From: an uncultured Verrucomicrobiales bacterium
Lineage (GTDB): Bacteria; Verrucomicrobiota; Verrucomicrobiia; Verrucomicrobiales; Akkermansiaceae
DNA length: 64,000 nt
Direction: 5' to 3'
Assembly (NCBI GenBank): GCA_937928545.1
Contig: CALGJQ010000014.1
Span: forward strand, 124,001 to 188,000
Shown here piece after piece: positions 1,963-24,182 of the stretch; within the stretch, counting starts at the first letter, position 1; every line of letters begins with the position of its first letter. The notes beneath the pieces are model-generated. The model ran no database searches. It was not told the origin of the DNA and saw only the letters and a list, made by a program, of their open reading frames with translations. The translations under genes were made by a program, and so were the position numbers.

Positions 1963-3957
1963 TTATTGGTTCCAAGAAGAGGGGAGGGCATTGGCGGCCT
2001 CGTCAGGGGCGTCTTTTGTCCATAATTTCCCAAGCCATTTGAGTGCTTGGGCCGATTTTTCAGGGTTATCGATTTTTTGAATATGCCGGAGAGCTGATTG
2101 ATAGTCTTTTTTCTCGGTCAGGACTGATGACAGCGAGGCATGTGCTTCATCATGGAGGGCACCTGCAGGGGCATTATTGGCCCAGGTAATGGCTTGATTG
2201 AGAGAAGAGGTGTTTGTTTGTGCGCTTTCTAGTCTGATGATTTTTACCAGTGCGGTGTTGAAGTGATTTTCGCTGAGTTGGTCTTGGAGCCACTGGAAGC
2301 GGCTTTGAAAATCATCATGTCCGAAGAGGCCAATCGAGGTGATGATTTTGTGCTTTTCTGGGTGAGGATCTCCGTGTTGGAGAAGAGTCATGGCGGCATC
2401 TGGGTCTTTGGTAAGTCGCACCAAATTAGGGAATCCATGGGTTGCGAGGAGATTCCTGACCGAGGGGTCTCTTTCTTCAGTCATGAGTTTTCGGAAGAGC
2501 TTGGGGTCTTGAGCTTTCGCGATGGTGGAGGCGAGGCTTGCGACTTCACGACGGAGGTTGGGGTCTTTTTCTTGATGGTAGAGGCTCACCGCGCGCGCAG
2601 GATCGGTGAGTGCGAGGGTGTCGAGGATGAGTTTAAAAAGCGGGCCTTCTTGATTTGTCTTTGCGCCTTTTCCAAGGAGTTCTCCGGTCTTTTTCTTTTC
2701 TGAGAACCATTGGAGAACGGCATCTGGATCAGTTTGAACCCAATCGCTAAACGCTTTGTTGAAATGGTGTGAAGTGGTGTCACCTGCGAGCATGCCATCG
2801 ATCACTAAGGCTGGATTTAGATGAGAATATGAAGCAGAAAGTTGATGAATGATCTGAAGTGCGATCATCTTGCCTCTCGGATTTTCATGAGAATTTTCGA
2901 TTTGAGTAGTGAGTTCGGAAAGTTCTTCCACATTCATGCGAGCGATGGGGAGAAAGGTTCGCGACATCTTGATCATGTCGTAAGTGGAAGAGGCTTGGGA
3001 GACGTCCTGGAGGAAGGAGTCGAGATGGAAGTGAGCACTTTGTGCATTCAGGAGATCCTTAACGGTAGATCGCTTCTGATGAAGCGAGGTGGATCTCGCT
3101 TGTGTTGGGATTTTTGAAGAGGAGGAATCTTGATCCATGAGAGACTTTTTAAGCTGTGAGGTCGTCTCCGCTTGATAGGCGGCAGGGATCGAGGCCGTTA
3201 CGAAGATCAGACAAGCGGCGAGGAGCGATTTTTTCAGAGAAGTCATGGTGAGGATGGTATTTGTGAGGAGGGCTGAGATCCCGAGGGTAGGGGCATTTTT
3301 GAGAGCTGAGACCGCGAGAAGAGAGGATGCCTTGGCTGGAGAGGTCGCGATAAATTGCACGCCAAGTCCGGCCGTGAGGGTCGTCGTGGGGAGGCTTACG
3401 CCTTGTTTTCTGAGTAGTGATGAAAGACGTTCTAGGCCTCGCTTGAGTTGCATCTTACTCGCGCTCACTGAGGTTTTGTTGATTGCGGCAATCTCCCGAT
3501 GTTTTTTGTTCTCAAAAAAATGAAGTAGCAGGACTTCGCGTTCTCTTTCTGGAAGCTGGTCAAGCGCATGATCAAGGTGGGGTCGTGCATCGTCCCAGAT
3601 GGGTGGGTTCATTTCATGAGAGGTGCTTGGGTCTTTACTGAAACGTTGATGTTTCGCGCTCCGGCGAGCTTCGCTGCGCATGGCGTAGATTGATTCCAGA
3701 CGCGTGGTTTGAAAAACCCACCCGCTGAGAGAAGGGTGTCGAATCAGAGCTGAAGCCTTACGGGCTAGAAGACTCAAGACGATTTGAGTGATGTCCTCTG
3801 CGAGCTGTGGATTCCGAGTGCGGCGCAAGGCGCTCGAGTGAATGAGGGGAGAGAAGTATTCCACAAGCTGAAGAAATGCTTCTTCGCGATGGTCGCCTTG
3901 AACAAATTCCTTCAGGAGTTTATTGGGATCGTTTTGAGCAGTGAGAGACCTCGGCAT
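1963..3957 (-). CDS. ECF-type sigma-70 factor fused to a transmembrane segment and a repeat domain
   Basis: The N-terminal 190 residues or so are an ECF sigma factor. Region 2 contains YFSPLIHSSALRRTRNPQLAEDITQIVL and region 4 contains LPEREREVLLLHFFENKKHREIAA with a helix-turn-helix. A transmembrane helix (LKKSLLAACLIFVTASIPAAY) follows near residue 255, then about 390 residues of helical repeats like those of the downstream gene. The ATG at 3957 (MPRSLTAQ) is preferred; a TTG at 4017 in the same frame would add 20 residues. Sigma factors with membrane and extracytoplasmic extensions are known in Planctomycetes and Verrucomicrobia. The layout suggests a membrane-tethered sigma factor that may sense through its own tail or be released by proteolysis (inference). 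Confidence 0.85.
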   Translation of the reverse strand: MPRSLTAQNDPNKLLKEFVQGDHREEAFLQLVEYFSPLIHSSALRRTRNPQLAEDITQIVLSLLARKASALIRHPSLSGWVFQTTRLESIYAMRSEARRSAKHQRFSKDPSTSHEMNPPIWDDARPHLDHALDQLPEREREVLLLHFFENKKHREIAAINKTSVSASKMQLKRGLERLSSLLRKQGVSLPTTTLTAGLGVQFIATSPAKASSLLAVSALKNAPTLGISALLTNTILTMTSLKKSLLAACLIFVTASIPAAYQAETTSQLKKSLMDQDSSSSKIPTQARSTSLHQKRSTVKDLLNAQSAHFHLDSFLQDVSQASSTYDMIKMSRTFLPIARMNVEELSELTTQIENSHENPRGKMIALQIIHQLSASYSHLNPALVIDGMLAGDTTSHHFNKAFSDWVQTDPDAVLQWFSEKKKTGELLGKGAKTNQEGPLFKLILDTLALTDPARAVSLYHQEKDPNLRREVASLASTIAKAQDPKLFRKLMTEERDPSVRNLLATHGFPNLVRLTKDPDAAMTLLQHGDPHPEKHKIITSIGLFGHDDFQSRFQWLQDQLSENHFNTALVKIIRLESAQTNTSSLNQAITWANNAPAGALHDEAHASLSSVLTEKKDYQSALRHIQKIDNPEKSAQALKWLGKLWTKDAPDEAANALPSSWNQ

Positions 3958-4015
3958 GGTGGGGTGGTTGATTAATAACTGCCGTAGGTCTGGTTTGGTC
4001 ACAAGAAAGTGACAC

Positions 4016-4049
4016 AAAAAAAATCACGGCCCGCTTTCGCGGACCGTGA
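4016..4049 (-). terminator. Rho-independent terminator of the PPC-repeat gene
   Basis: Read on the minus strand, an 11-bp stem with one mismatch (TCACGGTCCGC / GCGGGCCGTGA) and a GAAA loop is followed by eight T. It lies 38 bp past the stop of the gene at 4087-6069 and just before the sigma-factor gene, separating the two transcripts. Confidence 0.85.
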
Positions 4050-4086: not shown

Positions 4087-6069
4087 CTAGTTGCGAGTGA
4101 TGCGGTAGAAGCGCTTGTCCGCGCTGGAGTCGTTAAATGTGTATTCGGTTGTTGTTCCGGAAGTGGCCAGAATGGTGGATTGGACAATGGTGCTCCAGTC
4201 CATGAGGTCGGGTGAGGACGTGAGGGAGTAGGTTTGATTTGGCTCAGAAATGAACTCGATGGAAAATTGTCCAGTGGAAGGATTCCGAGTGAACTCCTTG
4301 ATTTCAGGAACGGCAACGGGGACGGGATCGAGATTTGCGAGGTTGAGGGTGAAGGGGCCTCCGCGGTCGAATCCATCGACGGCGATGTGGTAGGTTGTTC
4401 CGGAAGTGGCCATTAGGATGATGGTGTCTTCGTCGGTTGAGGAACCGATTTCATCTCCAGAGATGATTTCAGTGAGGGTATCAATGGTGTTTCCTTGGTG
4501 AATTGCGACGATGTATTCGAAGTCGGAATTGGCAATGGTGACTTCCCAGCGTCCATTGGAGGGGGCGGTCCAAGTGTACCAGAGAGAGGCGCTGGCGTCG
4601 TTGCCAATGAAGTCATCGGCGTGGTCGGGCTCGTCTTCTTCTGCGCTGGCGCAGGTGGAGTCGCCATCGATGGAGATGACGGCGGCAGAGCCGAGGTTGG
4701 TGGAGTCTGCAAAGCGATCGTTTTCTGGGGCAGGGCAGATTTCTAGGTCAAACTCGTCGCTGAACTGAAGTGTGCCATCGTCATAGCCATCAAAGGAGAT
4801 GTAGTAGGTGGTGTTGGCGGTGGCGGTGATTGTGATGCCGGTTCCTCCACGTCCGGCTCTGGCGGCGCTGGCGGCGATGACGGATAAGTTGGCAGGGCTT
4901 CCGGTCATTGCGGAGACGGTGTAAGGAGAGAAGCCAAAGGATTCGGTGATGATGTTGTAGTCTCCGGCGGTGGAGGGGGTCCAGGTGTACCAGACGGTTT
5001 GGGAGGTGATGTTTCCAGAGCTGGTGGTGTCGGCTGGGTCAGTTGATTCGGTATCGGCTCCGACGGTGGTGCCTGTGGTTTGGGCGGTGGAAGATGAGCC
5101 GAGGTTTTCGGCGTTCGCGATGTCATTATTCGAGGGAACGGAGACGGCGTTGGTGAAGGTGATGTCGTATTTTCCGGAGGATGAGAAGGTGTCGAATTCA
5201 GCGACGGCTTCTGTGGCGATGAGGTATTGGGTGCCTGCGGTGAGGAGGACGGTGGTTGTTTCTTCTTCTCCTTCGAAAACGCTGTCTCTTTCTGTGACGA
5301 GTTCGAGGTTGGCGAGAGAAGTGCCGGTGTAGATGGCGATTATGTTATCGGCGAAATCGTTTTCAGGCGTGACCGTGATGGTGACGAAGGAAGTGACGGT
5401 GGGGGTGTAGGAATACCAGAGTGAGCTTGTGAGTTCGTTGAAGGAGATGAAGTTTCCGTGCACGGGCTCGCCGCTTTCTGCGGAGGCTCCTCTGTTATCT
5501 TCACCGCTGATGGTGATGGGGAGGGTGGTGGGAATGACGGTGGGGTTGGCGAAGTCATCATTCGCGGGAATGGGGACTTCGGTGACGCTGAGGTCGAAGG
5601 TTCCAGTGGCTTGGCTTTGTCCATTTTGAGAAGCGGAATCAATGGCGAAGTAGTATTGGGTGCCTGCGGAGAGTTGGGTGACGAGGGTTTCGTTGAAATT
5701 TGCGCCCTCTAGGTTTGTCTCGTTGACGAGGGTGAGCGAGTTGACTGAGGAGCCGGTGTAGAGGCTGATGATGCCATCGAGGCCGGCGCTGGAGTTTTGC
5801 ATTTCGACCGATAGGGCGAGGTCGGTGGTGGGAGTGAAGGTGTACCAGAGGGAGTTGGAGGCGACATTGAAAAAGAATGTTGATTCGCCGTGATCGGGTT
5901 CGTCGCCTTCGGCTGTTGCGGCAGTGTTGTCTACAGCGTTGGCGGTGAAGGGGAGGGTGGTGGGAATGATGGTTGCGTTGGCAAAGTCATCATTCGATTG
6001 GGCGAATGATGTCGCTGTGGAGAGAGCAAGCAGCGATACGATGATTTGAGTTGGGAGTTTGTTTTTCAT
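4087..6069 (-). CDS. Secreted PPC-type repeat protein
   Basis: A 660-residue protein with a signal peptide (MKNKLPTQIIVSLLALSTATSFAQ). Four tandem beta-sandwich units each begin with an NDDFANA-like motif followed by a SLWYTFTP/TVWYTWTP strand and a YYFAIDS/YYISFDG-like strand, spanning roughly residues 25-165, 168-315, 318-450 and 451-590. These resemble bacterial pre-peptidase C-terminal (PPC) domains. The last 65 residues form the short tail common in verrucomicrobial exported proteins (YSLTSSPDLMDWS, ending KRFYRITRN), which may be a sorting or cell-surface module. No catalytic domain is present, so it is probably an adhesin-like or scaffold protein. It has its own terminator. Confidence 0.8.
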   Translation of the reverse strand: MKNKLPTQIIVSLLALSTATSFAQSNDDFANATIIPTTLPFTANAVDNTAATAEGDEPDHGESTFFFNVASNSLWYTFTPTTDLALSVEMQNSSAGLDGIISLYTGSSVNSLTLVNETNLEGANFNETLVTQLSAGTQYYFAIDSASQNGQSQATGTFDLSVTEVPIPANDDFANPTVIPTTLPITISGEDNRGASAESGEPVHGNFISFNELTSSLWYSYTPTVTSFVTITVTPENDFADNIIAIYTGTSLANLELVTERDSVFEGEEETTTVLLTAGTQYLIATEAVAEFDTFSSSGKYDITFTNAVSVPSNNDIANAENLGSSSTAQTTGTTVGADTESTDPADTTSSGNITSQTVWYTWTPSTAGDYNIITESFGFSPYTVSAMTGSPANLSVIAASAARAGRGGTGITITATANTTYYISFDGYDDGTLQFSDEFDLEICPAPENDRFADSTNLGSAAVISIDGDSTCASAEEDEPDHADDFIGNDASASLWYTWTAPSNGRWEVTIANSDFEYIVAIHQGNTIDTLTEIISGDEIGSSTDEDTIILMATSGTTYHIAVDGFDRGGPFTLNLANLDPVPVAVPEIKEFTRNPSTGQFSIEFISEPNQTYSLTSSPDLMDWSTIVQSTILATSGTTTEYTFNDSSADKRFYRITRN

Positions 6070-6114
6070 TTTTTGGGGCAGTTTTATAATGATCTGGAAG
6101 GTGTTAAATTTTGA

Positions 6115-7392
6115 CTAGTTTTGAAGGTAAAGCCAGACGAAGCCGAGTGCTGTTTCTTGAGCGAATTTTTCGTATTCCGCGTCTAGTTGATCCGCTCCAT
6201 CGAGATAGTCTTCCCAGATTTTTTGTTCGGCGGGTGTCCAGTTGTCTTCGTTATCGAAGTCGAGCTTGGAGGCTTTGCTGTTTTTTTCGAAGGCGTCGTA
6301 TTTGACCTGCCATTTGGCGAGTTTTTGGTTTGCGTCTTCGAGGGTGAGGCTTTCGTTTTTGAGGTGAAGGAATTGGCGGTCACCGACGATGAGGTCGAGT
6401 TTGCCGTCGTTGTTAAAGTCGATGATGCTGACTCTCCAGCTGACATTGGGTGCTTTGATATGATCGATGCCGAGGACTCGGGGAGGCATTTTTTCTTCGT
6501 CATCATCCTCTCGAGAGAGGCGGAAGGGGGGGATGAGGTTGAGGGCTTTTTCAAATTGCGGTTCCTTTTTTGTGCCGATGTTTTTAAAGAGGAAGACTCC
6601 GCTGCCGCCTGATCCGCTGATGAGGTCCATGTCACCATCGCGGTCCCAGTCGATGAAGGTTGGGCCGCTATCGCCTGCTTTGGTGCGGAGTTTTTGGCCG
6701 TCTGGGCCTTTGAGCCAGATGGGCTCTGGGTTGAATTTGCCTTTTTCGGTGGCGGGGAAGAAGGCGAAGGTTCCGAAAGAGTTTCCTGAGACGAGGTCGA
6801 GGAGGCCGTCGTCGTTTAAGTCGATGGGGAAGGGGGCGCTTTTGATGCGTTCTTTGGGGTTGGGAGATGGATTATCTTTGGACTGCATGATGAGGGGTTT
6901 GTCATCGGTTCCGCGGATGGTGGTGGGTTTGGAGAATGCGCCATCGGGGGTGCCTAGGAAGATGTGCATGGGGGCGAAATTTGCGGTGGCGTTTCCGTAA
7001 GTTCCGGCTTGATAGGAGCCTGAGATGAGGTCGAGGTTTCCGTCGCCATTAAGATCCGCGAACTGCGGAGTGGTGGAGTGACATCACCAGATGTCTGGGA
7101 CGGTGGCGATGTCTTTCCCGGTCATGAACCAGCGCCCTTTTGCGAGGGTGCCATCGGCTTTGCGGTCGAAGATCTGGACGCGTCCTTGTGCGAATTGGCC
7201 GACGATGAGGTCTTTGCGGCCATCACCATTCACATCAGCCCATGAGGGGGCGGCGTAGCCGGGGTTGGTGACGAGGATGGGCTCTCCAAGGGATTGAAGG
7301 AGAGTGGGTTGTTTGAATTCGACTTTCTCTGCGAGGAGGATCGAGGGGGAGATTATCCCAATGAGGGTAAAGAAAGCAGGGATCCTTTTCAT
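6115..7392 (-). CDS. FG-GAP/VCBS beta-propeller protein, predicted selenoprotein (Sec103-Cys104)
   Basis: Reading from ATG 7392, a signal peptide (MKRIPAFFTLIGIISPSILLA) leads into FG-GAP/VCBS units with calcium-binding DxNxDGxxD loops (DVNGDGRKD, DLNGDGNLD, DLNDDGLLD, DWDRDGDMD, DFNNDGKLD). Codon 103, at 7084-7086, is TGA. The same frame continues for 322 codons to a stop at 6115, and the second FG-GAP loop begins only nine codons after the TGA, so the protein is one unit of 425 residues if TGA is decoded. The next codon is Cys104, the only cysteine in the whole protein, giving a vicinal Sec-Cys pair. A SECIS-like hairpin follows the TGA. The downstream paralogue has TGA at the equivalent place and the same ending (GFVWLYLQN versus GFVWVMYQK). 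A nonsense pseudogene is the alternative. Confidence 0.8.
7055..7086 (-). promoter_or_regulatory. UGA Sec codon plus bSECIS-like hairpin (propeller A)
   Basis: The TGA is at 7084-7086. The 5-bp stem UCCGC/GCGGA with loop AGUUC occupies 7069-7055 on the minus strand. The loop starts 19 nt after the TGA, has G at loop position 2 and is closed by C-G. This fits the general bacterial SECIS rules (short stem, small loop with G in the first two positions, loop about 16-37 nt from the UGA). Confidence 0.7.
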
Positions 7393-7506
7393 GCGTCAGT
7401 TCGGAAAGCGTGCGAATCTCGCGGATTCGTCACAATTATTTCCGAAAAGATCTGAGCGCCCTTTTTGAGGGGCGGGCGATGGTCCTATGACCTCACTTTG
7501 ATGTCC

Positions 7507-8169
7507 TTACTTTGGGGTTTGCGCTTTTTTTAGAGCTTCGCTGAGGGCGTCTTTCACTCGCTGGGAGCTTTTCTTTTTCTTGAAGTTTACTGGTTTGATT
7601 TTCTTGCCATTGATGGTTCCTTCGTCGAGGGGATAGGCTGCGATGGCTTTTCCGTCTTTGTCGATGAGGACCAGTGAGTCGAGCCACTGTGTGAGGGGGG
7701 TGGGTGCTTTTTTGTCGCTGGCTTCTTCAGGGGTGGTTTCGGAATCTGAACCAAACCAGGATTTGATGATGCTATCTTTGTGAGTCCAGAAAGGGGACTG
7801 GAGAACAGGGACGTCAAGTTTGTCCCGAAGAGGGGTGCCATTGCCTTTGTGTTGTTCGGCGGAGGCCCAATCGACGAGGACGAGCTGGATGGGGTTTTCT
7901 TCTGTGCTGAGCTCTTTGACCATTTTTTGAAAAGAATCTAACTGATTCTTCATGAGGACGGGGCCTCAACAATCGCAGTCAAAGGTAATGAGCCAAAGGG
8001 AGGTGGTGCCTTTGAAGTTTTCTACGGAGAGTTTTTTTCCGAAGGTTTTGGAGCTTGGGTTGGTGTCTGGGGCGGACCAAGCGGGGTCAATTTTTACGGG
8101 GAGGGAGGTTTCTTCGGCCTGAAGGAGGGTGAGGGATAGAAGAATGGCGGAGATGGCGGTTTTTATCAT
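7507..8169 (-). CDS. Exported thioredoxin-like protein, predicted selenoprotein (CDCU motif, Sec68)
   Basis: A signal peptide (MIKTAISAILLSLTLLQA) precedes a thioredoxin/AhpC-TSA-like start (LSVENFKG, then SLWLITFDCDC). Codon 68, at 7966-7968, is TGA, and the frame continues GPVLMKNQLDSFQKM and on to a stop at 7507, 220 residues in all. Reading TGA as Sec gives Cys65-Asp-Cys67-Sec68-Gly-Pro, a CxxU redox motif at the expected end of the first core strand. The protein has no other cysteines. The rest has thioredoxin-like strands (IQLVLVDWAS, then LDVPVLQSP, then LDSLVLIDKDGKAIAAYPL). A 7-bp hairpin follows the TGA. It lies between two FG-GAP predicted selenoproteins in one apparent operon, so it may reduce their Sec-Cys pair (inference). 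It is about the size of exported thioredoxin-fold proteins. Confidence 0.8.
7932..7968 (-). promoter_or_regulatory. UGA Sec codon plus bSECIS-like hairpin (thioredoxin-like gene)
   Basis: The TGA is at 7966-7968. A perfect 7-bp stem AAGAAUC/GAUUCUU with loop AGUUA occupies 7950-7932 on the minus strand. The loop starts 22 nt after the TGA, and loop start (AG) and closing pair (C-G) match those of the two propeller genes. The stem can be extended by one G-U pair. Confidence 0.7.
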
Positions 8170-8213
8170 GGTTTTTGTGGGGTGACTAGAAGGTGAGGAT
8201 TAGAGAGGTGGTC

Positions 8214-9410
8214 TTATTTTTGATACATGACCCAGACAAATCCGGTGTATTTTTCTGAGGTTAATTCTGATTTGTTGGCGTAGTTTTTGGTGGATCTTTC
8301 TACGAGGGCTTTCATTTCAGGCGATTTCTTTTTGGCTGCGGCCATGGCTTTACTGATCTCAAGCCGTTCTTTTTGAAAGTGTTCCCAGCCTTTTTTGGCG
8401 ATTTCTTTTTCGGTGCCTTGGCTTGGGGAGACGAGGATGGCCATGTCTCCGAAGATGAGGTCGAGTTTTCCATCTGCGTTGAGATCAGCGACGGAAACGC
8501 GGGTGGCGGCGGCGGGTTTGCGTGGGTCATCGATCCATGAATCTGCTTCGCGTGGGACGGTGGGGAGGAGGGTTGTGATTTTGTGATGGAGTTTGATGGG
8601 GTTCCCTTTTCCGGCGGAATTTTCGACCATGATGATTCCTCCGGCGTCTGAGCCGGTGATGAGATCGAGATCTCCGTCGCCATCGAGGTCTGCGAAAAAA
8701 GGGTCGCTGTGGGAGCCGGTGTTGAGAGCTTTGCCCTCGATTTCGATTCTGGTGGATTGGGGAGAGAATTTTCCGTGGCCTTGGCCTTTGAAGAGGTAAA
8801 AGGTGCCTTCAAAGTTGCCGACGACGAGGTCTAGATTTCCATCGCCGGTGAAGTCAAGGGCAGTTGGGCGAGTGCAAATCCGGGCTTGGTCTTTGTCTTT
8901 GCTGTCTGGGGCTGGGGCGATGATGAGGGGTTTGCCGTCAGTTCCGGTGAGGGTTTCGGGCTTTTTAAAGGTGCCGTCTTCTTGGCCCCAGAGGATGTAG
9001 TAGAGGCCGGCCATTTCTGGGAGCTTACGATCGGCGTAGGAGCCGGAGAGGATGTCGGGGTGTCCGTCGTTGTTGAGATCCACAACCTGTGGAGTGGGTG
9101 AGGTGCATCACCAGATTCCTGGGATTTTGAGGGTTTCACCGCCTGCTTGGAGGGGCTTGCCGGGGCCAAAATTTGATTCGCCGAGGCCTGGGTAGAGGGT
9201 GATTTGTCCTTTTCGGTATTGGCCGACTAGGAGGTCCTTTTTTCCATCTCCATCGAGATCGTGAAGGTAGGGCGAGGCGTAGCCTGGCATGGGGAGGGTG
9301 ATGGTTTTTCCATCTGCGGTGAGGCGGACTGGTTCTTTGAACTCTGCTGCGGGTATGATGCTTGAGCCTAGGGCTAGGATGGTAAGCTGGGTGAGCAGGG
9401 TATTTTGCAT
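8214..9410 (-). CDS. FG-GAP/VCBS beta-propeller protein, predicted selenoprotein (Sec101-Cys102)
   Basis: This is a paralogue of the gene at 6115-7392 and probably the first gene of the operon, 44 bp upstream of the thioredoxin-like gene. A signal peptide (MQNTLLTQLTILALGSSIIPA) is followed by FG-GAP loops DLDGDGKKD, DLNNDGHPD, DFTGDGNLD, DLDGDGDLD and DLNADGKLD. Codon 101, at 9108-9110, is TGA within Gly-Ile-Trp-TGA-Cys-Thr-Ser, and the frame continues to a stop at 8214 (398 residues). The Ile-Trp-TGA-Cys context and the following TPQ-x-x-DLN match the paralogue. Only one other cysteine exists (Cys179). Such propellers are usually calcium-stabilised extracellular binding scaffolds; a vicinal Sec-Cys pair would add a redox function (inference). 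No catalytic domain is seen. Confidence 0.8.
9079..9110 (-). promoter_or_regulatory. UGA Sec codon plus bSECIS-like hairpin (propeller B)
   Basis: The TGA is at 9108-9110. The 5-bp stem UCCAC/GUGGA with loop AGGUU occupies 9093-9079 on the minus strand, at exactly the spacing seen in propeller A. The third pair of the CCNC stem is A-U here and G-C there, a compensatory change. The loop start AGGU also occurs in the well-known E. coli fdhF SECIS loop. Confidence 0.7.
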
Positions 9411-9485
9411 CTCGAAGAAAGAGCGGATGGGACTGCAAAATCCGTGAGTTTTTTTGCTAATTTGGAGAATGGGGGGAGTTCTTGC

Positions 9486-10898
9486 TTAGGAGATGATTTG
9501 TTTGACGACTTCGGCGGGGTTGACGCCGGTGAGTCTCTGGTCGAGGCCTTGGAAGGGGAAGGTGAGGCGGTTGTGGTCGATGCCGAGTTGGTGGAGGATG
9601 GTGGCGTTGAAGTCGCGGACGCGGACTTCGTCTTTGGTGACGTTGTAGGAGTAGTCGTCGGTTTCGCCGTGGGTGATGCCGCCTTTGATGCCTCCGCCGG
9701 CCATCCAGGTGGAGAAGCATTTGGGGTGGTGGTCGCGGCCGTAGTTGTCACGGGCGAGTCTGCCTTGGCAGTAGGTGGTGCGTCCGAATTCTCCGGCGAA
9801 GACGATGAGGGTGTCATCGAGCATGCCGCGTTGTTTGAGGTCGTTGATGAGGCCGGCGCAGGGTTGGTCGACGTCGTAGGCTTGGCCGCGCACTTTATTG
9901 GGGAGGTTGACGTGGTGGTCCCAGCCACGGTGGAAGAGTTGGATGAAGCGGACGCCGCGCTCGGCCATGCGGCGGGCGAGGAGGCAGTTGCGGGCGAAGG
10001 AGCCGGATTTTTTGACTTCGGGGCCGTAGAGTTTTTCGTTGATGGCTTCGTTCTCGCCGGAGAGGTCGGTGAGCTCGGGGACGGAGGCCTGCATGCGGAA
10101 GGCCATTTCTTGTTGGGCGATGGTGGTTTGGATTTCGGGGTCGCCGATTTTGTCGAGTTGTTCGGCGTTGAGCTTGGTGACGAGGTCGAGCATTTTGTGG
10201 CGGTGCTGTCGGGTGACGCCTTTTGGGTTGGAGAGGAAGAGGACGGGGTCGCCGGAGGGTTGGAAGGGGACGCCTTGGTGTTTTGAGGGGAGGAAGCCGG
10301 AGCCCCAGAGGCGGGAGTAGAGGCCTTGGACGTTTTGTTTATCGCCGGACCAGAAGGCGGAGTTGAGGACGATGAAGTCGGGGAGGTTTTGGTTCATGCG
10401 GCCGAGGCCGTAGGAGAGCCAGGCGCCCATGGAGGCTTTGCCGGGGATTTCGGTGCCGGTGCAGAAGAGGGTTTTGCCGGGGTCGTGGTTGATGGCGGTG
10501 GTGGAGGTGGATTTAATGAGGGCGAGGTGGTCGGCAACGGAGCCGAGGTGGGGGAGGACTTCGGAGAGGTGCATGCCGCTTTGGCCATGTGGGTTGAATT
10601 TGAACATGGAGGGGGCGACGAGTTTGTCTTTGCCCTTGGTCATAGCGGTGACGCGTTGGCCTTGGGTGACGGAGTCGGGGAGGGGTTCTTTGAAGCGTTT
10701 GTGGAGGTGGGGTTTGTGGTCGAAGAGGTCGAGCTGGGAGGGGGCGCCGGCCATGAAGAGGAAGATGACGCGTTTGGCTTTGGCTTCTGGGGTGGGCCCG
10801 GCGGAGGCGGCTTGGGCGGTGAGGTTGCCGAGGACGGTGGCGCCGAGGCCCATGGAGGTGGTGTTGAGGAATTGGCGGCGGGTTTGTTGGTCGAACAT
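9486..10898 (-). CDS. DUF1501 protein with Tat-type leader
   Basis: A 470-residue DUF1501 protein (sulfatase/alkaline-phosphatase-like fold). The start at 10898 (MFDQQTRRQFLNTTS) gives a twin-arginine RRQFL leader; the frame is open much further upstream but only through the neighbouring gene. Family motifs include KAKRVIFLFMAGAPSQLDLFDHKP, a VFAGEFGRT block (residues about 370-378), and a C-terminal NYGRDHHPKCFSTWMAGGG followed by GETDDYSYNV. Partner of the PSCyt1/DUF1549/DUF1553 gene immediately upstream, the usual arrangement in Planctomycetes and Verrucomicrobia. Likely exported folded by Tat; the biochemical activity of the family is unresolved, although a role in polysaccharide breakdown is often proposed. 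Confidence 0.92.
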   Translation of the reverse strand: MFDQQTRRQFLNTTSMGLGATVLGNLTAQAASAGPTPEAKAKRVIFLFMAGAPSQLDLFDHKPHLHKRFKEPLPDSVTQGQRVTAMTKGKDKLVAPSMFKFNPHGQSGMHLSEVLPHLGSVADHLALIKSTSTTAINHDPGKTLFCTGTEIPGKASMGAWLSYGLGRMNQNLPDFIVLNSAFWSGDKQNVQGLYSRLWGSGFLPSKHQGVPFQPSGDPVLFLSNPKGVTRQHRHKMLDLVTKLNAEQLDKIGDPEIQTTIAQQEMAFRMQASVPELTDLSGENEAINEKLYGPEVKKSGSFARNCLLARRMAERGVRFIQLFHRGWDHHVNLPNKVRGQAYDVDQPCAGLINDLKQRGMLDDTLIVFAGEFGRTTYCQGRLARDNYGRDHHPKCFSTWMAGGGIKGGITHGETDDYSYNVTKDEVRVRDFNATILHQLGIDHNRLTFPFQGLDQRLTGVNPAEVVKQIIS

Positions 10899-10922
10899 AG
10901 AAAATGGAGGTTTGAAGAGGGG

Positions 10923-11012
10923 TTTGAACCGCGAAGAAGCAAAGACGCGAAGTTTTTTAAGGCTTGGTTGGGGGGCTTTGGTTGTGAAGCGGGCAGGAAT
11001 GTCCACGCTCCT
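10923..11012. repeat. Dispersed 3'-end repeat, copy 1 (GAACCGC element plus hairpin)
   Basis: Contains a TTTGAACCGCGAAG start, an ACGCGAAGTTTTTTAAGGCTTGGTT core and a terminal imperfect hairpin GGGCAGGAATGTCC. It lies directly after the stop codon of the PSCyt1 gene at 11012. Related copies are at 14798, 46651, 50249 and, as hairpin only, 51743. Confidence 0.75.
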
Positions 11013-13348
11013 TATTGTTTGTTTTTGAAGGTGTCTTGGTTGAGGAGGGTGTGGACGATCATGGTCCAGGCGAAGTGGTCGTCTTGGTCTTCGCGGAAGG
11101 TTGTTAGGGCTTCTTTGAGGAGGTTGAGGGTTTGTTGAGTTGGGGGGTGGGCGGTGATGGTTTCGTGGAGGTGGGTGAGTTTTTGCTCTTCGGTGCCTTC
11201 TTGGGAGAGGAGTTGGGTGGCTTTGTGTTGGGCGGCTTTGAAGTACTCGGGCTCGTTCATGAGTAGGAGTGCTTGGAGGGGGGTGTTGGTGCGCTCGCGG
11301 CGGGCGATGCAGGCGTCGCGGCTGGGTGCGTCGAAGATGGTCATTTGGGGTGGGGCGAGGCCGCGTTTCCAAAAGGTGTAGATGGAGCGGCGTTTGTCAG
11401 CGGGGGTGGGGTCGGCTTTGAATGATTTGGGGAAGGAGTCGGGGAGGGTGACCATTTTCCAGATGCCGGTGGGTTGTGGGGTTTTGATGGAGCGGCCGCC
11501 CATTTCTGGGTTGAGAAGGCCGGTGACGTGGAGGAGTTGGTCGCGGATGATTTCTGAGTCGAGGCGGGTGCGGGAGCCGCGGGCGAGGAGGCGGTTTTCG
11601 GGGTCGGTGTCGAAGTCGACGGAGGTGCCGGAGGAGGATTGTTGGTAGGTTTGGGTGAGGACGATTTCTTTGATGAGGGCTTTGATGTCCCAGCCGGATT
11701 CGATGAATTTGAGGGTGAGGTGGTCGAGGAGTTTGGGGTGGGAGGGCCACATGCCTTGGGCGCCGAAGTCTTCGGATGTTTTGACGAGGCCGGTGCCGAA
11801 GAGTTGCTGCCAGAAGCGGTTGACGGCGACGCGGGCGGTGAGGGGGTTTTCTTTTTCGGTGAGCCAGTTGGCGAGGTCCATGCGGGAGGCGATGTCTCCG
11901 GATTTTTTGAGGGGCGGGAGGAAGTGGGGGGTGTCACGGGTGACGAGGTCGCCGAGTTGGTCGTAGTTTCCACGGACGCGGATGTGGGTGGGTTTTACTT
12001 CGTTGCGCTCACGCATGACCATGGCTCCTCGGACTTGGTGGAGGTAGGTTTCGCGTTGTTTTTGGAGAGTCTTGATGGCGCCGGAAAGTTGTTTGAGTTT
12101 TGCGTCCCAAGCGTCGTCTTTGACGGGGATTGATTTGAAGGTGGCAAGAGCGGTTTGTTCGTCTTTGATCTTGGTGTCAAAGTCGGCAAGTTTTGCGTTT
12201 TGTTCTTCGGTTGGGAGGTCGAGGTAGGGTTTTTGGAGGCCTCGGTAGAAGTCGGGGCCGCTGCGTTTTCCGGTTTCGGGTTTGCCGTCGAAGTTGTTGA
12301 AGAAGGCGTACATTTGGAAGAAGTCCTTCTGGGTGATGGGGTCGTATTTGTGGTCGTGACAGACGGCGCATTGGAGGGTGAGGCCCATGAAGGCGGTGCC
12401 GACGGCGGAGACGCGGTCGACGACGTTTTTGAAGTGGGATTCTTCGGGGAGGGCGGTGCCGGCATCGATAATGAGGTGGAGGCGGTTGAAGCCGGAGGCG
12501 ATGAGTTGTTCTTGGGTGGGTGATTCGTAGAGGTCTCCGGCGATTTGGTATTTGGTGAAGTCGTCGTAGGGGAGGTTTTGGTTGAAGGCGGAGATGACCC
12601 AGTCGCGGTAGGGGGAGTGGTCGCGGAAGTGGTCGTGGTGGTTGCCGTTGGTGTCGGCGACGCGGACGAGGTCGAGCCAGTATTTGGCCATGTGCTCGCC
12701 GTAAGCGGGGGTGGCGATGAGGCGGTCGACGAGGGTTTCGGTGGCTTGGGGGGAGGGGTCGTGGAGGTAGGTTTTGATCTCGGCGGGAGTGGGTGGGAGG
12801 CCGGTGAGGTCGAGGGAGAGACGGCGGATGAGGGTGCGTTTGTCGGCTTTTTCTTTGGGTGATTTTTGCTTGGCTTCGATTTGGGCGAGGACGAATTGAT
12901 CGATGTCGGAGAGAGGCCAAGCGGTGTCAGCGACGGTAGGTGGGGTTTGTTCTTTGGCGGGGACGAAGGCCCAGAAGTCTTGGTATTCTGCGCCTTGTTC
13001 GATCCATTGTTTGAGGAGGGATTTTTCGTCTGAGGTGAGGGCTTTGGAGTGGCCGTCCTCTGGTGGCATGGGGTCGTCTTTGTCGATGATGCGTTGCCAG
13101 GCGAGGGATTTTTCGAGGGAGTTTGGGGTGATGGCGGCGAGGCCGTCGTCGTTTTCAGCGTAGGCTCCTTCTGGGGTGTCGAGGCGGAGGCCAGCTTTGC
13201 GGCTGGGTTTTCCTTTGGCGTCGACGCCGTCATCTGGGCCGTGGCAGGCGATGCACTTGGCGGAGAGGATGGGACGGATGTCCTGATTAAAGGAGAGTTC
13301 TGCTCGGGAGGGAGCGATAAGTGCGAGAAGGAGTAAAAGTCGCTTCAT
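11012..13348 (-). CDS. PSCyt1/DUF1549/DUF1553 planctomycete-type cytochrome protein
   Basis: A 778-residue protein with a signal peptide ending near PSRA. It has an N-terminal PSCyt1 haem-c motif (Cys32-x-x-Cys35-His36, CIACHG), a DUF1549 domain (LIRRLSLDLTGLPPTPAEI, KYWLDLVRVADTNG) with a second CxxCH (CAVCHDHKYDPI), and a C-terminal DUF1553 domain (NPLTARVAVNRFWQQLFGTGLV, RRSIYTFWKR). Ends KNKQ-stop, where the family normally stops. It is paired with the DUF1501 gene downstream. These pairs are thought to act in the periplasm on polysaccharides or in electron transfer, but the reaction is unproven. It is a paralogue of the gene at 14573-17623. Confidence 0.93.
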   Translation of the reverse strand: MKRLLLLLALIAPSRAELSFNQDIRPILSAKCIACHGPDDGVDAKGKPSRKAGLRLDTPEGAYAENDDGLAAITPNSLEKSLAWQRIIDKDDPMPPEDGHSKALTSDEKSLLKQWIEQGAEYQDFWAFVPAKEQTPPTVADTAWPLSDIDQFVLAQIEAKQKSPKEKADKRTLIRRLSLDLTGLPPTPAEIKTYLHDPSPQATETLVDRLIATPAYGEHMAKYWLDLVRVADTNGNHHDHFRDHSPYRDWVISAFNQNLPYDDFTKYQIAGDLYESPTQEQLIASGFNRLHLIIDAGTALPEESHFKNVVDRVSAVGTAFMGLTLQCAVCHDHKYDPITQKDFFQMYAFFNNFDGKPETGKRSGPDFYRGLQKPYLDLPTEEQNAKLADFDTKIKDEQTALATFKSIPVKDDAWDAKLKQLSGAIKTLQKQRETYLHQVRGAMVMRERNEVKPTHIRVRGNYDQLGDLVTRDTPHFLPPLKKSGDIASRMDLANWLTEKENPLTARVAVNRFWQQLFGTGLVKTSEDFGAQGMWPSHPKLLDHLTLKFIESGWDIKALIKEIVLTQTYQQSSSGTSVDFDTDPENRLLARGSRTRLDSEIIRDQLLHVTGLLNPEMGGRSIKTPQPTGIWKMVTLPDSFPKSFKADPTPADKRRSIYTFWKRGLAPPQMTIFDAPSRDACIARRERTNTPLQALLLMNEPEYFKAAQHKATQLLSQEGTEEQKLTHLHETITAHPPTQQTLNLLKEALTTFREDQDDHFAWTMIVHTLLNQDTFKNKQ

Positions 13349-13380
13349 GGGTGTGCGGCGAATTGTAAGACAGATTTTGA

Positions 13381-14781
13381 TTATGCCAATAGGTCTTTCA
13401 TGATTTGGCCGTGGACGTCGGTGAGGCGGAAGTCGCGGCCGGCGTGGTGGTAGGTGAGGCGCTCGTGATCGAAGCCGAGGAGGTGAAGGATGGTGGCTTG
13501 GAGGTCATGGACGTGGACTTTGTCCTTGGTGATGTGGAAGCCGAAGTCATCGGTCTCGCCGTAGGTGCCGGGCTTGGTGCCGCCGCCGGCCATGAGGGTG
13601 GTGAAGGCTTGGGGGTGGTGGTCGCGGCCCGCTTTGCGGCCGAGGGCGGGGTTGGTTTCGACCATGGGGGTGCGGCCGAATTCTCCACCCCAGACGACGA
13701 GAGTTTCGTCGAGGAGGCCGTGTCGTTTTAAGTCTTGGATGAGGGCGGCGGTGGCTTGGGCGGTGGTGCCGCAGTTGTTTTCGGTGGAGCCTTTGACATC
13801 GGAGTGGGCGTCCCAGCCGCTGTGGTAGATGTTGATGAAGCGGACGCCGCGTTGGACCATGCGGCGTGCGAGGAGGCAGGCGCGGGCGAAGGAGTGCTGG
13901 TCGCGGTCGCAGCCGTAGAGCTTGATTGTTTCGTCGGACTCGGCTTTGAGGTCCATGAGTTCGGGGGCGGAACTTTGGAGGCGGGCGGCCATTTCGTAGG
14001 AGGCCATGCGGGTGGCGATTTCCTGATCGTTGATGGTGGCGAGGCGCTCGGCGTTGAGTTTGTTGACGAGGTTGAAGGTGTCGGATTGGAGTTCGGGCGA
14101 GAAGCCTTCGGGGGTGGAGACGTTGAGGATTGGGTCTTTTCCTTTTCGGAATTGGACGCCGGTGTAGGTGGTGGGGAGGAAGCCGGAGGACCAGAGGGAT
14201 GAACCGCCGGAGAGTCCTGCGCCGGTGGACATGACGACGAAGGCGGGGAGGTTATCGGTTTCGGAACCCAAGCCATACAAGGTCCATGAGCCGAGGGAGG
14301 GGCGGCCGGGTTGGGAGAAGCCGGAGTTGAGAAAGATCTGGGCGGGGGCGTGGTTGAATTGATCGGTGGTGCAGGATTTGACGATGCAGAGGTCATCGGC
14401 GACTGTGCCGAGTGGGGCGAGGGGGGAGCCGAGGGTGGCTTGGGTTTCGCCGTATTTTTTGAACTCGAATTGCGGGCCGAGGACGGCGGCGTCGGGTTGA
14501 ATGAAGGCGTATCGTTGGTCGCCGATGATGGATTTTGGGAGGGGGGAGCCTTCGAGTTTGGTAAGGTGGGGTTTAGGGTCGAAGAGTTCGAGTTGGGAGG
14601 GGGCGCCAGCCATGAAGAGGTGGATGACGGCTTTGGCTTTTGCTTTGATGGGGGGAGCTTGGGGGGCAAGGGAGCGGCCTTGAAGGGAGTTGGTGAGGAG
14701 GGAGGCGGCGGCGATTTTTCCGAGGCCGATGCCGCATTCGTTTAGGAAGTAGCGGCGGGAGAGATTGGTGGAGTGGGGCAT
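13381..14781 (-). CDS. DUF1501 protein, second copy, Tat-type leader
   Basis: A 466-residue DUF1501 protein paralogous to the one at 9486. Twin-arginine leader LSRRYFLNEC; family blocks KAKAVIHLFMAGAPSQLELFDPKP, VVWGGEFGRTPMVE, GRDHHPQAFTTLMAGGG and GETDDFGFHI; ends with DRDQHSFARA-type middle region and LTYHHAGRDFRLTDVHG. Its start overlaps the over-long 3' end of the upstream PSCyt1 gene by 209 bp, an overlap created by the loss of that gene's normal stop. It is still expected to be translated from its own ATG at 14781. The function of the family is not established. Confidence 0.92.
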   Translation of the reverse strand: MPHSTNLSRRYFLNECGIGLGKIAAASLLTNSLQGRSLAPQAPPIKAKAKAVIHLFMAGAPSQLELFDPKPHLTKLEGSPLPKSIIGDQRYAFIQPDAAVLGPQFEFKKYGETQATLGSPLAPLGTVADDLCIVKSCTTDQFNHAPAQIFLNSGFSQPGRPSLGSWTLYGLGSETDNLPAFVVMSTGAGLSGGSSLWSSGFLPTTYTGVQFRKGKDPILNVSTPEGFSPELQSDTFNLVNKLNAERLATINDQEIATRMASYEMAARLQSSAPELMDLKAESDETIKLYGCDRDQHSFARACLLARRMVQRGVRFINIYHSGWDAHSDVKGSTENNCGTTAQATAALIQDLKRHGLLDETLVVWGGEFGRTPMVETNPALGRKAGRDHHPQAFTTLMAGGGTKPGTYGETDDFGFHITKDKVHVHDLQATILHLLGFDHERLTYHHAGRDFRLTDVHGQIMKDLLA

Positions 14782-17623: not shown

Positions 17624-17660
17624 CGCGAAGGTTTTGAATACGCGCTGAGGGTGTTCTTTC

Positions 17661-18422
17661 TTACTCCTTGAGAGGGAGGAGTTCGATGGATTTGAATTGG
17701 ATAGGGGCGGTTTCGGCTTGGATTGAAATGTAGCCGGAGGTGAGGGGAGTGCCGTCGTCGAGTTGGGTTTTGTCGTATTCGCAGACGACTTGGCCTTTGG
17801 CGAGGTGTTTGAATTTATCGCCGCGGACTTCGACTTCGACGGTGACCCATTCGTCGCCATGAGTGGTGGGGCCGCCGGTGTTGATGACGTGCTTTTTGGT
17901 GAGTTTACCGTCCCAATGGAGATGTGTGCCGGGGGTGCAGATGTTTAGGGTGCCGCGCTCGCCCTTGCCTAGGCCACCGAGGAATTGGACTTCGATCGAG
18001 TTGGGGAAGTCTTGGTCCTTCGTGATGGTTTTGGGATCCTGGCAATGGAGCATGAAGCCGTTGTTCCGTTTGGCCCAGCCGGGGCCGCCATTGACCTGCT
18101 TGCCGATGAAGCGGTAGGTGGCGCGGATTTTGTAGTGGGAATAGGGGGTTTTGTAGAAGAGGTGGCCGAACTCGCCGTTGAATTTTTCCCACTTCGAGTA
18201 GTCGATGGTGAGGAGGCCGTCTTTGACGACAAAGGTGTCCTTGTAGTTCACGCCGAGGTCTGAGCCGGCGAATTTTGGGGTCCAGTGGGTGAGGTCTTTA
18301 CCGTTGAAGAGGGGGATCCATTTTTCTTCTTGGGTTTTTGGGGCTTCCTTTTTTTCGCCGTGGTGGTCGGCGTGAAGGAGAGGGGTGGAGATGAGGAGAG
18401 AGAGGGCGATTGTTTTAAACAT
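17661..18422 (-). CDS. DUF1080 (3-keto-disaccharide hydrolase-like) secreted protein
   Basis: A 253-residue protein from ATG 18422, with a signal peptide (MFKTIALSLLISTPLLHA) followed by a His/Lys-rich linker. DUF1080 core: WIPLFNGKDLTHWTPK, then FVVKDGLLTIDYS, then HYKIRATYRFIG, NNGFMLHCQDPKT, SIEVQFLGG, DEWVTVEVEV and the closing SGYISIQAETAPIQFKSIEL. The family is a concanavalin-like sandwich linked to disaccharide or glycan processing. It is complete, unlike the family member at the left edge. It precedes the PSCyt1/DUF1501 pair by 38 bp, consistent with one exported saccharide-processing operon. Confidence 0.93.
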   Translation of the reverse strand: MFKTIALSLLISTPLLHADHHGEKKEAPKTQEEKWIPLFNGKDLTHWTPKFAGSDLGVNYKDTFVVKDGLLTIDYSKWEKFNGEFGHLFYKTPYSHYKIRATYRFIGKQVNGGPGWAKRNNGFMLHCQDPKTITKDQDFPNSIEVQFLGGLGKGERGTLNICTPGTHLHWDGKLTKKHVINTGGPTTHGDEWVTVEVEVRGDKFKHLAKGQVVCEYDKTQLDDGTPLTSGYISIQAETAPIQFKSIELLPLKE

Positions 18423-23800: not shown

Positions 23801-24182
23801 TTTGGTGGGAACGGTTCTTGGAGGAATCTGGGCGAATGATTCTTGGGGGCGTTTTTGGGGATGGGATCCGAAAGAGAATGGAGCTCTTCTTATTGTGCTT
23901 TGGACCTTGATCATCCTGCACAGTCGCTTAGCAGGCTGGATGAGTGGTTGGGGGATTCACTTGATGAGTATCTTGGGCGGGTCGATCGTGGTCTTCTCTT
24001 GGTGGGGTGTGAATATGCTCGAAGTCGGTCTGCACTCTTACGGATTTATCGAAGGAGCGAGCACGGTTTACTACTTTTATGGAGCGACTTTGGTTGCCTT
24101 CCTCGTGGGAGTGGTGGCTTGGGCTATTGAGAAGGCGCAGAAGTCGGCAGGGAAAATGCCATCTCCAATTCCAAAGACTTAG
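20853..24182 (+). CDS. Cytochrome c biogenesis fusion protein (ResB-CcsA/ResC)
   Basis: A 1109-residue membrane protein. The N-terminal third is ResB-like (helices at LAGYEIAVICLSLLFLLTFFGTIEQ and GAYWVIVVLGINML, then KKFGVLLSHCSILFMLIAGAV, and a large periplasmic segment). The middle is a long periplasmic linker (residues about 450-790). The C-terminal third is CcsA/ResC with the haem-handling motif WGRFWGWDPKE and periplasmic His residues in LAGIVHRFVITGRPPVSNLYDT and HVVTITIGYSGG. System II ligates haem to CxxCH apocytochromes in the periplasm, which suits the many CxxCH proteins in this window. ResB-CcsA fusions are known in several phyla. It is co-transcribed with the lipoprotein. Confidence 0.93.
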   Translation: MSDSTPKPRSSLGARIFRILAGYEIAVICLSLLFLLTFFGTIEQKWFGLWATIHKYFDISSFIVLPTLGDGKAIFLPLPGAYWVIVVLGINMLCGAIIRARKGWKKFGVLLSHCSILFMLIAGAVSSVSKEEGHMRVLQGEKSDYAQKLFKHDIEVFKYDEKGDREPPAIVRSEFIKPLGEDDKLEATFEKFDFTLEVDKYLPVSLLALESLSNPAPNGVEVVDGFFITETEKNIKQEEANMPGCYVSVKDKDGNLIQRLVLWAGNPYPVSFTHEGNRYGVTYLMEVWPMPFVVDLHKTLGEYHPGTSIPSWFQSNITKVDGSSREDYEIVMNEPARHDGYTLYQAGYTAAAEGETPSSTFAIVNNPSDKWPEYALYASTIGLLIHFLLMLGRFSGSSRSKKSKKAPASDVSPVSASPAPSYRGLRWGLVIVFLLALFCVIGFGIRGILPETEVREVDAYSPWSEEVVEVASAIPVQDGGRVKPLATYARFKMLSFHGALTMKVKSGGVVHKIGPVEWFLDCMFRPELADDLPIFRLDDTDILKPFNIETKKRRARLSYNEIQAGGTADEDGFLQLINRGRELLAKQSDEKQKAEEEGRKEKPLSANEQKTVDFAQLVLGYSAVRESFDIIRAGLPEIDSNQLAYVDQETVEMLNQVSDPSRFFYWLPILDRVMNSISRLESPEVRGFESKLNRQVYMATFGASLLPPQSAEDDEWVNLGKGVEQFLGGKLADPTLFFKDFRALSDIGDAAKKPNSAEFLQKLTAWKKDFNYRAEVRDEGEKIDSEVTYYNRSYFMNGLAWFIFAFLVSALGWIVRDGKGGRVIQWITAVVFSVGVLYVLAGIVHRFVITGRPPVSNLYDTIPFITAGAVIVLGIAEFLTRRRILLSIGAAIGVIGLFFAFRFELGDAKDNMDPLRAVLDSNYWLATHVVTITIGYSGGLIACFLSMTYVFMALAGVIKDSKAFHRFMTRTVYGITCFTLLFSLVGTVLGGIWANDSWGRFWGWDPKENGALLIVLWTLIILHSRLAGWMSGWGIHLMSILGGSIVVFSWWGVNMLEVGLHSYGFIEGASTVYYFYGATLVAFLVGVVAWAIEKAQKSAGKMPSPIPKT

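What the first reader, a model, noticed from the sequence alone, without database searches (positions are those of the whole stretch)
6115..9410. Operon of three predicted exported selenoproteins
Seen: three adjacent minus-strand genes each hold exactly one in-frame TGA and no other defect, and the protein domains continue seamlessly beyond it. In two paralogous propellers the TGA is at the same site (Ile-Trp-TGA-Cys ... Thr-Pro-Gln-x-x-Asp-Leu-Asn). In the third it completes Cys-Asp-Cys-TGA-Gly-Pro in a thioredoxin-like fold. All three start with signal peptides. TGA is an ordinary stop in several neighbours. Known: bacteria decode UGA as Sec when a hairpin follows closely. Inference: an exported redox trio, with the thioredoxin-like member perhaps reducing the Sec-Cys pair of the propellers. 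I know of no described FG-GAP/VCBS selenoprotein family.
Basis: partly seen in the sequence, partly recalled or inferred. Interest (0 to 1): 0.95.

Follow-up and report, generated by a model that had tools for sequence, protein, structure and literature searches.

The report
Secreted propeller selenoproteins with Sec-Cys pair
Three adjacent bacterial genes each carry one in-frame UGA stop codon that is predicted to be read as selenocysteine; two of them belong to a family of likely secreted proteins with a predicted propeller shape that keeps this codon at the same place in 17 genomes of its order and that was not found among published selenoprotein families.

Summary
Three minus-strand genes (8214-9410, 7507-8169, 6115-7392) each contain exactly one in-frame TGA. 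The genome carries tRNA-Sec, selA, selB and selD; its selD also has an in-frame TGA. In 288 genomes of the order, the 25 best propeller matches all carry one TGA, at the same codon, in 17 genomes. All 17 have selA, against 75 of 271 others. The 4 full-length proteins among 120 listed database hits have Cys at the site. Codon choice is unusually uniform in the codons just after the TGA, where a hairpin with an AG(G/U)(U/C) loop sits. The same loop type follows the TGA of unrelated selenogenes. No FG-GAP/VCBS entry was found in a 2026 inventory of 119 prokaryotic selenoprotein families. The propeller is modelled as five-bladed with a vicinal Sec-Cys pair before blade 2. At 3 of 28 loci a thioredoxin-fold gene with its own in-frame TGA adjoins the propeller gene. 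I infer, but have not shown, an exported redox relay in which thioredoxin-fold selenoproteins serve the Sec-Cys pair; a soft-metal site is the main rival. Operon status, export and chemistry are untested.

The parts
8214..9410 (-). VCBS1: FG-GAP propeller gene, 398 aa, Sec predicted at residue 101 (IW-U-C-TSPTPQ)
   Evidence: frame; PF13517 106.1 bits (cut-off 26.9); homologues; model pLDDT 93.5
9108..9110 (-). in-frame TGA of VCBS1, predicted Sec codon
   Evidence: same column in 25 of 25 homologues
9079..9093 (-). SECIS-like hairpin of VCBS1: UCCAC-AGGUU-GUGGA, loop starts 19 nt after the UGA
   Evidence: codon-choice conservation
7507..8169 (-). thioredoxin-fold gene, 220 aa, Sec predicted at residue 68 (CDC-U-GP)
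   Evidence: homologue in G039 at 63% identity, also with one TGA; weak NF053656 match; model and fold matches
7966..7968 (-). in-frame TGA of the thioredoxin-fold gene, predicted Sec codon
7931..7951 (-). SECIS-like hairpin of the thioredoxin-fold gene: GAAGAAUC-AGUUA-GAUUCUUU
6115..7392 (-). VCBS2: FG-GAP propeller gene, 425 aa, Sec predicted at residue 103 (IW-U-C-HSTTPQ)
   Evidence: PF13517 88 bits
7084..7086 (-). in-frame TGA of VCBS2, predicted Sec codon
7055..7069 (-). SECIS-like hairpin of VCBS2: UCCGC-AGUUC-GCGGA (A-U pair of VCBS1 replaced by G-C)

Best explanation
Three adjacent genes each hold one in-frame UGA that is predicted to be decoded as selenocysteine, and two of them are paralogues of an FG-GAP family, predicted to fold as propellers, in which this codon is followed by a Cys codon in 24 of 25 genes and then by a hairpin. 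How it would work: SelB would bring Sec-tRNA to the UGA by binding the AG(G/U)(U/C) loop 16-32 nt downstream. The full-length products would be exported. The propellers, modelled as five-bladed, would carry a vicinal Sec-Cys pair in the loop that leads into the inner strand of blade 2. That pair would cycle between a selenenylsulfide and the reduced form while acting on an extracytoplasmic substrate, and an exported thioredoxin-fold selenoprotein, here CDCUGP, would reduce it again. Shown: the single TGAs, their conservation, the Cys replacements, the hairpins (as sequence and predicted fold), the sel genes and the co-occurrence. Inferred: decoding as Sec in the cell (about 0.95), export (about 0.9), redox role of the pair (about 0.6), thioredoxin-fold partner (about 0.45).
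For: Machinery: tRNA-Sec 59.2 bits over the cut-off of 47, confirmed by ARAGORN with anticodon TCA; selA 479.8 bits; selB 319.4; selD 380.8 with one TGA of its own. Conservation: the 25 matches with E of 2.9e-19 or better among 288 genomes of the order all carry exactly one TGA, at the same column. Co-occurrence: selA in 17 of 17 genomes with the gene and 75 of 271 without (Fisher 1.3e-9). Cys replacement: the 4 full-length proteins among the 120 listed of 1712 database hits all have Cys at the site; in 31 aligned full-length members the site is U in 27 and C in 4, the next residue Cys in 30. On a tree with the site masked the Cys forms do not form one clade (weak to moderate support). Hairpin: same-codon excess 0.36 over codons +1 to +13 against 0.02 (sd 0.07) elsewhere in 22 genes; AG(G/U)(U/C) hairpin after 30 of 36 selenogene TGAs, and after 29 of 765 TGAs that end open stretches of 100 codons or more, 27 of these 29 being selenogenes, one of them counted twice as L069 and L096 (the rule was set after seeing the hairpins). 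Partner: TGA-containing thioredoxin-fold genes adjoin the propeller gene at this locus, in G167 and in G039; the three show no significant BLASTP similarity to one another.
Against: No protein-level proof. Covariation in the hairpin is slight: one pair with a double change, in 2 of 25 genes; 79 of 500 shuffles reach that pair count, though 1 of 500 reaches the covariation score. selB was not found at E of 1e-60 or better in 3 of 16 other genomes with the gene (G104, G039, G152, 80-92% complete), although all 16 have selA. The strict hairpin rule missed 6 of 36. G152 has a frameshifted copy, and G081 keeps only an N-terminal remnant whose homology ends before the Sec site. A phylum-wide draw of 387 genomes found the family only in the window's own genome, so it is patchy. 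25 of 28 propeller loci have no thioredoxin-fold TGA neighbour by the scan used (several contigs end close to the gene), and the CDCU protein itself was found in only two genomes. The redox function rests on residue identity and neighbourhood alone.
Confidence: 0.85

Rival explanations
1. The genes are selenoproteins, but the vicinal Sec-Cys pair of the propeller would be a soft-metal or metalloid ligand (copper, mercury, arsenic) rather than a redox cycle, and the thioredoxin-fold genes would be metallochaperone-like.
For: Adjacent Cys-Sec (CU) motifs are listed for organometallic and metal-binding selenoproteins such as HgcA, SaoL and MbdU. The model of the third protein matches Sco copper chaperones as well as ResA and TlpA.
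Against: No metal-transport or resistance family was hit among the propeller neighbours scanned (6, 10; most neighbours were not scanned). The order here is UC, not CU. Two of the adjoining TGA genes carry redox-type motifs, WUGVC and WUAGC.
Confidence: 0.25
2. Selenoprotein decoding is right, but the three genes are not a functional unit: the thioredoxin-fold neighbour is coincidental.
For: Only 3 of 28 distinct propeller loci have such a neighbour by the scan. Other propeller genes have unrelated neighbours such as MlaE, E1 dehydrogenase, PALP or CrtO. In G039 the CDCU gene lies on another contig than the propeller.
Against: The neighbours are three dissimilar thioredoxin-fold genes, lie 44, 18 and 21 nt from the propeller gene, and all carry an in-frame TGA; independent recurrence is unlikely by chance (argument, no test run).
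Confidence: 0.35
3. UGA is read as another residue (code reassignment or suppression), not as Sec.
For: A readthrough product would look the same at the frame level.
Against: TGA ends 10 of 43 large ORFs in the window and ends the propeller gene of G118a itself. The site alternates with Cys only. A hairpin with a loop shared by selD and other selenogenes follows. All four sel genes are present.
Confidence: 0.02
4. The genes are decaying pseudogenes or carry sequencing errors.
For: Each gene is split by a stop; the copy in G152 is also frameshifted, and G081 holds a remnant.
Against: The same single TGA occurs in 25 of 25 homologues, 24 of them with no second lesion, and codon choice is constrained just downstream.
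Confidence: 0.01

Closest known systems
Inventory of 119 prokaryotic selenoprotein families (PMC13188914, 2026)
   Same: Same decoding logic: UGA, hairpin just downstream, Cys homologues.
   Different: The words FG-GAP, VCBS, PF13517 and PF01839 do not occur in its text; it says that the majority of characterised selenoproteins have a thioredoxin-like fold, whereas this is a predicted beta-propeller with a UC pair.
NCBIfam NF053656 redoxin_TUGYCR, thioredoxin-fold (seleno)protein
   Same: The G104 homologue passes it with 168.1 bits; the window protein hits it weakly.
   Different: The window protein scores 32.7, below the cut-off of 100, and reads CDCUGP instead of TUGYCR.
Pfam FG-GAP_3 (PF13517) / VCBS-repeat proteins
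   Same: Five DxDGDGxxD-type repeats seen in the sequence; both proteins pass the cut-off.
   Different: The weaker FG-GAP hits listed for the order cover mostly query residues 150-350 and lack the UC segment.
Five-bladed propellers of GH43/GH62 enzymes (5b6s, 3qef, 3k1u; blade number recalled)
   Different: Sequence identity 8-14% for these three; Foldseek itself ranked the PVL-type lectins first at TM 0.32-0.36. A shared fold shows no shared function.
ResA/TlpA-like thiol-disulfide oxidoreductases, including NF041054 WAxxUGC
   Same: The G039 gene upstream of the propeller is ResA/TlpA-like, with WUAGC.
   Different: All its NCBIfam scores are below the cut-offs.

Membership tests
Bacterial selenoprotein (SelB-dependent) | in-frame UGA in an otherwise intact, conserved frame | tested here: met
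Bacterial selenoprotein (SelB-dependent) | SECIS-type hairpin just 3' of the UGA with G in a small apical loop (feature as stated in PMC1088965) | tested here: met
   covariation itself is weak
Bacterial selenoprotein (SelB-dependent) | selA, selB, selC, selD in the genome | tested here: met
Bacterial selenoprotein (SelB-dependent) | Cys-containing homologues at the Sec site | tested here: met
   propellers: P0002-P0005; none was found for the CDCU protein
Bacterial selenoprotein (SelB-dependent) | selenium in the protein | not testable with these tools
   needs 75Se labelling or mass spectrometry
FG-GAP_3 repeat proteins (PF13517) | score over Pfam's gathering cut-off | tested here: met
   88 and 106.1 bits against 26.9
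Five-bladed beta-propeller | five-bladed fold | tested here: inconclusive
NF053656 redoxin_TUGYCR | score of 100 bits or more | tested here: not met
   32.7 bits
NF053656 redoxin_TUGYCR | TUGYCR motif | tested here: not met
   CDCUGP in the window protein and in the G039 homologue
Thioredoxin fold | thioredoxin-like topology around the motif | tested here: inconclusive
   low-confidence model (pLDDT 63.4), but 271 PDB chains match at E of 0.001 or better; the 50 listed are ResA-like, Sco, peroxiredoxin and related folds; no Pfam hit

The most novel reading that the evidence does not exclude
A previously unlisted and widespread selenoprotein family of secreted five-bladed propellers uses a vicinal Sec-Cys pair as an extracytoplasmic redox centre and is served by exported thioredoxin-fold selenoproteins, so that selenium flows through an all-selenoprotein relay outside the cytoplasm of Verrucomicrobiota and Planctomycetota. 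Gene callers hide the family by restarting inside the SECIS hairpin.
Probability: 0.4. Interest if true: 0.85.

Novelty: new variant of a known kind. Interest (0 to 1): 0.75.

Why it matters
It adds what looks like a selenoprotein family on a fold outside the thioredoxin-like majority of the 2026 inventory, in lineages that this review does not name (Verrucomicrob and Planctomycet do not occur in the main text of PMC13188914). Of the 120 database hits listed, 116 start after the Sec site, 115 of them at the aligned (V)V-D motif that the 3' side of the hairpin encodes, so public annotation probably loses the N-terminal part with the reactive pair. The family would give a direct test of whether selenium is used for redox chemistry outside the cytoplasm in these bacteria, and of how a vicinal Sec-Cys pair behaves.

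Tried and rejected
Weak Pfam and NCBIfam matches of the propellers (PliI, TcdB_toxin_midN, BBS2_Mid, XAC2610, FusH and others) are below cut-off and most likely reflect shared repeats; rejected. Rfam on the whole window at gathering score: 0 matches. Promoter/terminator scan of 5900-9700: 1 promoter-like site against 1.1 by chance, 4 terminator-like against 7.5, all on the + strand; it says nothing about the operon. A conserved gene neighbourhood as a guide to function: none general; a shared neighbourhood (MlaE, E1 dehydrogenase) appears only at 5 loci of the genus. PSD1/DUF1501 genes lie near the propeller gene at 3 loci (this one, own C19, G167), which I did not weigh. The phylum draw found no further genome.

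In one search L095 entered as a long untrimmed frame with 26 TGAs; only its aligned columns were used. Of the 80 loci only L095-L099, L104 and L107 were looked at one by one; L099 and L104 are not members. The hairpin rule missed 6 of 36: from the sequences, L098, L107 and G039trx have an AGUU loop but more than one G-U pair, G152 and G104b have four-pair stems, and L097 has a longer stem with another loop. Two weaker hits that reach beyond the repeats were read: G081 is an N-terminal remnant that ends before the Sec site; G150 is a general FG-GAP protein without the UC segment.

Papers: PMC13188914 seen as passages and part 1 of 3 of its family section, not the whole table in order; PMC12013277, PMC9312934, PMC1088965 and PMC4807772 seen as passages. 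Haft and Tolstoy 2025 was not held and not read, so an earlier mention there is possible. The supplementary selenoprotein list of PMC4807772 (Planctomycetes) was not read. Literature searches, of which only listings were seen otherwise.
Full report
WHAT IS THERE. Read with TGA as a residue, three adjacent minus-strand frames run without any other defect: VCBS1 8214-9410 (398 aa, TGA 9108-9110), a thioredoxin-fold gene 7507-8169 (220 aa, TGA 7966-7968) and VCBS2 6115-7392 (425 aa, TGA 7084-7086). Gaps between them are 44 and 114 nt. VCBS1 and VCBS2 pass Pfam FG-GAP_3 (106.1 and 88 bits, cut-off 26.9); the middle protein has no Pfam hit. TGA is the stop of 10 of 43 ORFs of 200 aa or more in the window.

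MACHINERY. The window lies in a 3.98-Mb assembly of 75 contigs, 91.75% complete. It has tRNA-Sec over the Rfam cut-off (ARAGORN agrees), selA, selB and selD, each over its cut-off. selD is itself split by one TGA at the GGU motif.

CONSERVATION. VCBS1 against 288 genomes of the same order: the 25 matches with E of 2.9e-19 or better, in 17 genomes, all carry one TGA; four of these genes are in the window's own genome. The TGA falls in one alignment column in all 25, followed by a Cys codon in 24. selA is present in 17 of 17 genomes with the gene and 75 of 271 without it. selB passes in the own genome and in 13 of the 16 others. A phylum-wide draw of 387 genomes gave only the own genome. In a named collection, L095 (Planctomycetales) and L096 (Verrucomicrobiales) carry the TGA with the same motif, and three divergent Planctomycetota loci (L097, L098, L107) read GUCVGFGP, WUCIGMGP and WUCIGMGS.

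CYS FORMS. Of 1712 database hits the best 120 were listed. Four are full-length, and all four read WCC where the others have WUC. 116 start beyond the site, 115 of them at the aligned (V)V-D motif, as the standard-code ORF at 8214-9083 does here, whose GTG start lies in the hairpin. A second search with the four Cys forms listed 120 of 4612 hits and gave no further full-length one. That the database truncations are caused by TGA was not checked on their DNA. In 31 aligned full-length members (27 TGA, 4 Cys) no third residue occurs at the site, and the next residue is Cys in 30. With the site masked, P0004 (Cys) groups with L095 (TGA) at support 0.815 and P0003 (Cys) falls elsewhere (0.78), which suggests at least two exchanges of Sec and Cys.

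HAIRPIN. Across 22 genes codon choice is about as uniform as expected (excess 0.02, sd 0.07, 153 columns) except in codons +1 to +13 after the TGA (0.36, 13 columns), with ACT-CCA-CAG-N-GTG-GAT nearly fixed. Two columns elsewhere also stand out (-86 at 0.43, +95 at 0.29). The DNA would form UCCAC-AG(G/U)UN-GUGGA; 95.3% of cells pair for the six-pair version, with one A-U to G-C double change in 2 of 25 genes, so covariation alone is weak. The same loop type follows the TGA of unrelated genes: the thioredoxin-fold gene here, selD, and thioredoxin-, TlpA- and peroxiredoxin-like genes of relatives. By a strict rule, set after seeing these hairpins, 30 of 36 selenogene TGAs have it; of 765 TGAs that end open stretches of 100 codons or more 29 have it, 27 of them selenogenes (one gene counted twice).

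PARTNERS. At 3 of 28 distinct propeller loci the adjoining gene is a thioredoxin-fold gene with its own in-frame TGA: CDCUGP here; WUGVC (Thioredoxin_8) 18 nt upstream in G167; WUAGC (AhpC-TSA/Redoxin, ResA-like) 21 nt upstream in G039. BLASTP finds no significant similarity between any two of the three. G104 has a redoxin_TUGYCR (168.1 bits) and a WUPFC peroxiredoxin-like gene on one contig. For the CDCU protein the database search gave two hits, the truncated entries of this genome and of a contig with the length of G039's (genomes). A DsbD-type transmembrane electron carrier exists in the own genome, as a relay would need.

INTERPRETATION. Decoding as Sec follows from four lines: conserved UGA, Cys alternation, a recoding hairpin, and sel genes with co-occurrence. 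Function is inference: likely exported proteins with a vicinal Sec-Cys pair, sometimes next to thioredoxin-fold selenogenes, suggest an extracytoplasmic redox relay; a soft-metal site is the main rival.

NOVELTY. A 2026 review lists 119 families; FG-GAP, VCBS, PF13517 and PF01839 do not occur in its text. Searches for selenoprotein with FG-GAP or with VCBS gave 2 and 1 papers, none relevant by title and abstract start. NCBIfam release 20 gave the propellers no hit over a cut-off (best XAC2610_fam, 24.2 bits against 35). Unread sources that could contain the family: Haft and Tolstoy 2025 (not held) and the supplementary lists of PMC4807772. The decoding mechanism is known; the family, fold and UC motif appear new.

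Noticed in passing
L090 (G000:C13:22000-34000), selD at 5351-6400 -: selD of the window's genome is itself split by a TGA at its GGU motif, with an AGUCU-loop hairpin downstream.
   Followed up: partly
G000:C5:11411-11764: A 126-codon frame matching late parts of the selA profile lies about 1.5 kb from the intact selA, perhaps a partial duplicate.
   Followed up: no
L089 9447-9929 - (G104): Peroxiredoxin-like frame with in-frame TGA in a WUPFC motif and an AGUUG-loop hairpin, about 3 kb from a redoxin_TUGYCR selenogene.
   Followed up: partly
window 9486-17860: Two tandem pairs of PSCyt/PSD1 and DUF1501 genes directly upstream of VCBS1; similar pairs lie near the propeller gene in own contig C19 and in G167.
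   Followed up: partly
window 1963-4017 -: 684-aa frame with sigma-70 regions 2 and 4 in its first 200 residues and a long C-terminal part without a Pfam hit.
   Followed up: no
window 20853-24182 +: 1109-aa frame with ResB-like and cytochrome c assembly domains: a cytochrome c maturation system in the same window.
   Followed up: no
window 26184-27818 -: Another FG-GAP protein (PF14312 FG-GAP_2) in an ordinary open frame.
   Followed up: no
window 4087-6069 -: 660-aa likely exported protein with a visible internal repeat (NDDFANxT..PTTLP) and no Pfam hit, 45 nt downstream of VCBS2.
   Followed up: no
L083 (G152) 5842 onward; L181 (G081): Damaged copies of the propeller gene: G152 keeps the TGA but is frameshifted; G081 keeps only the part before the Sec site.
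   Followed up: partly
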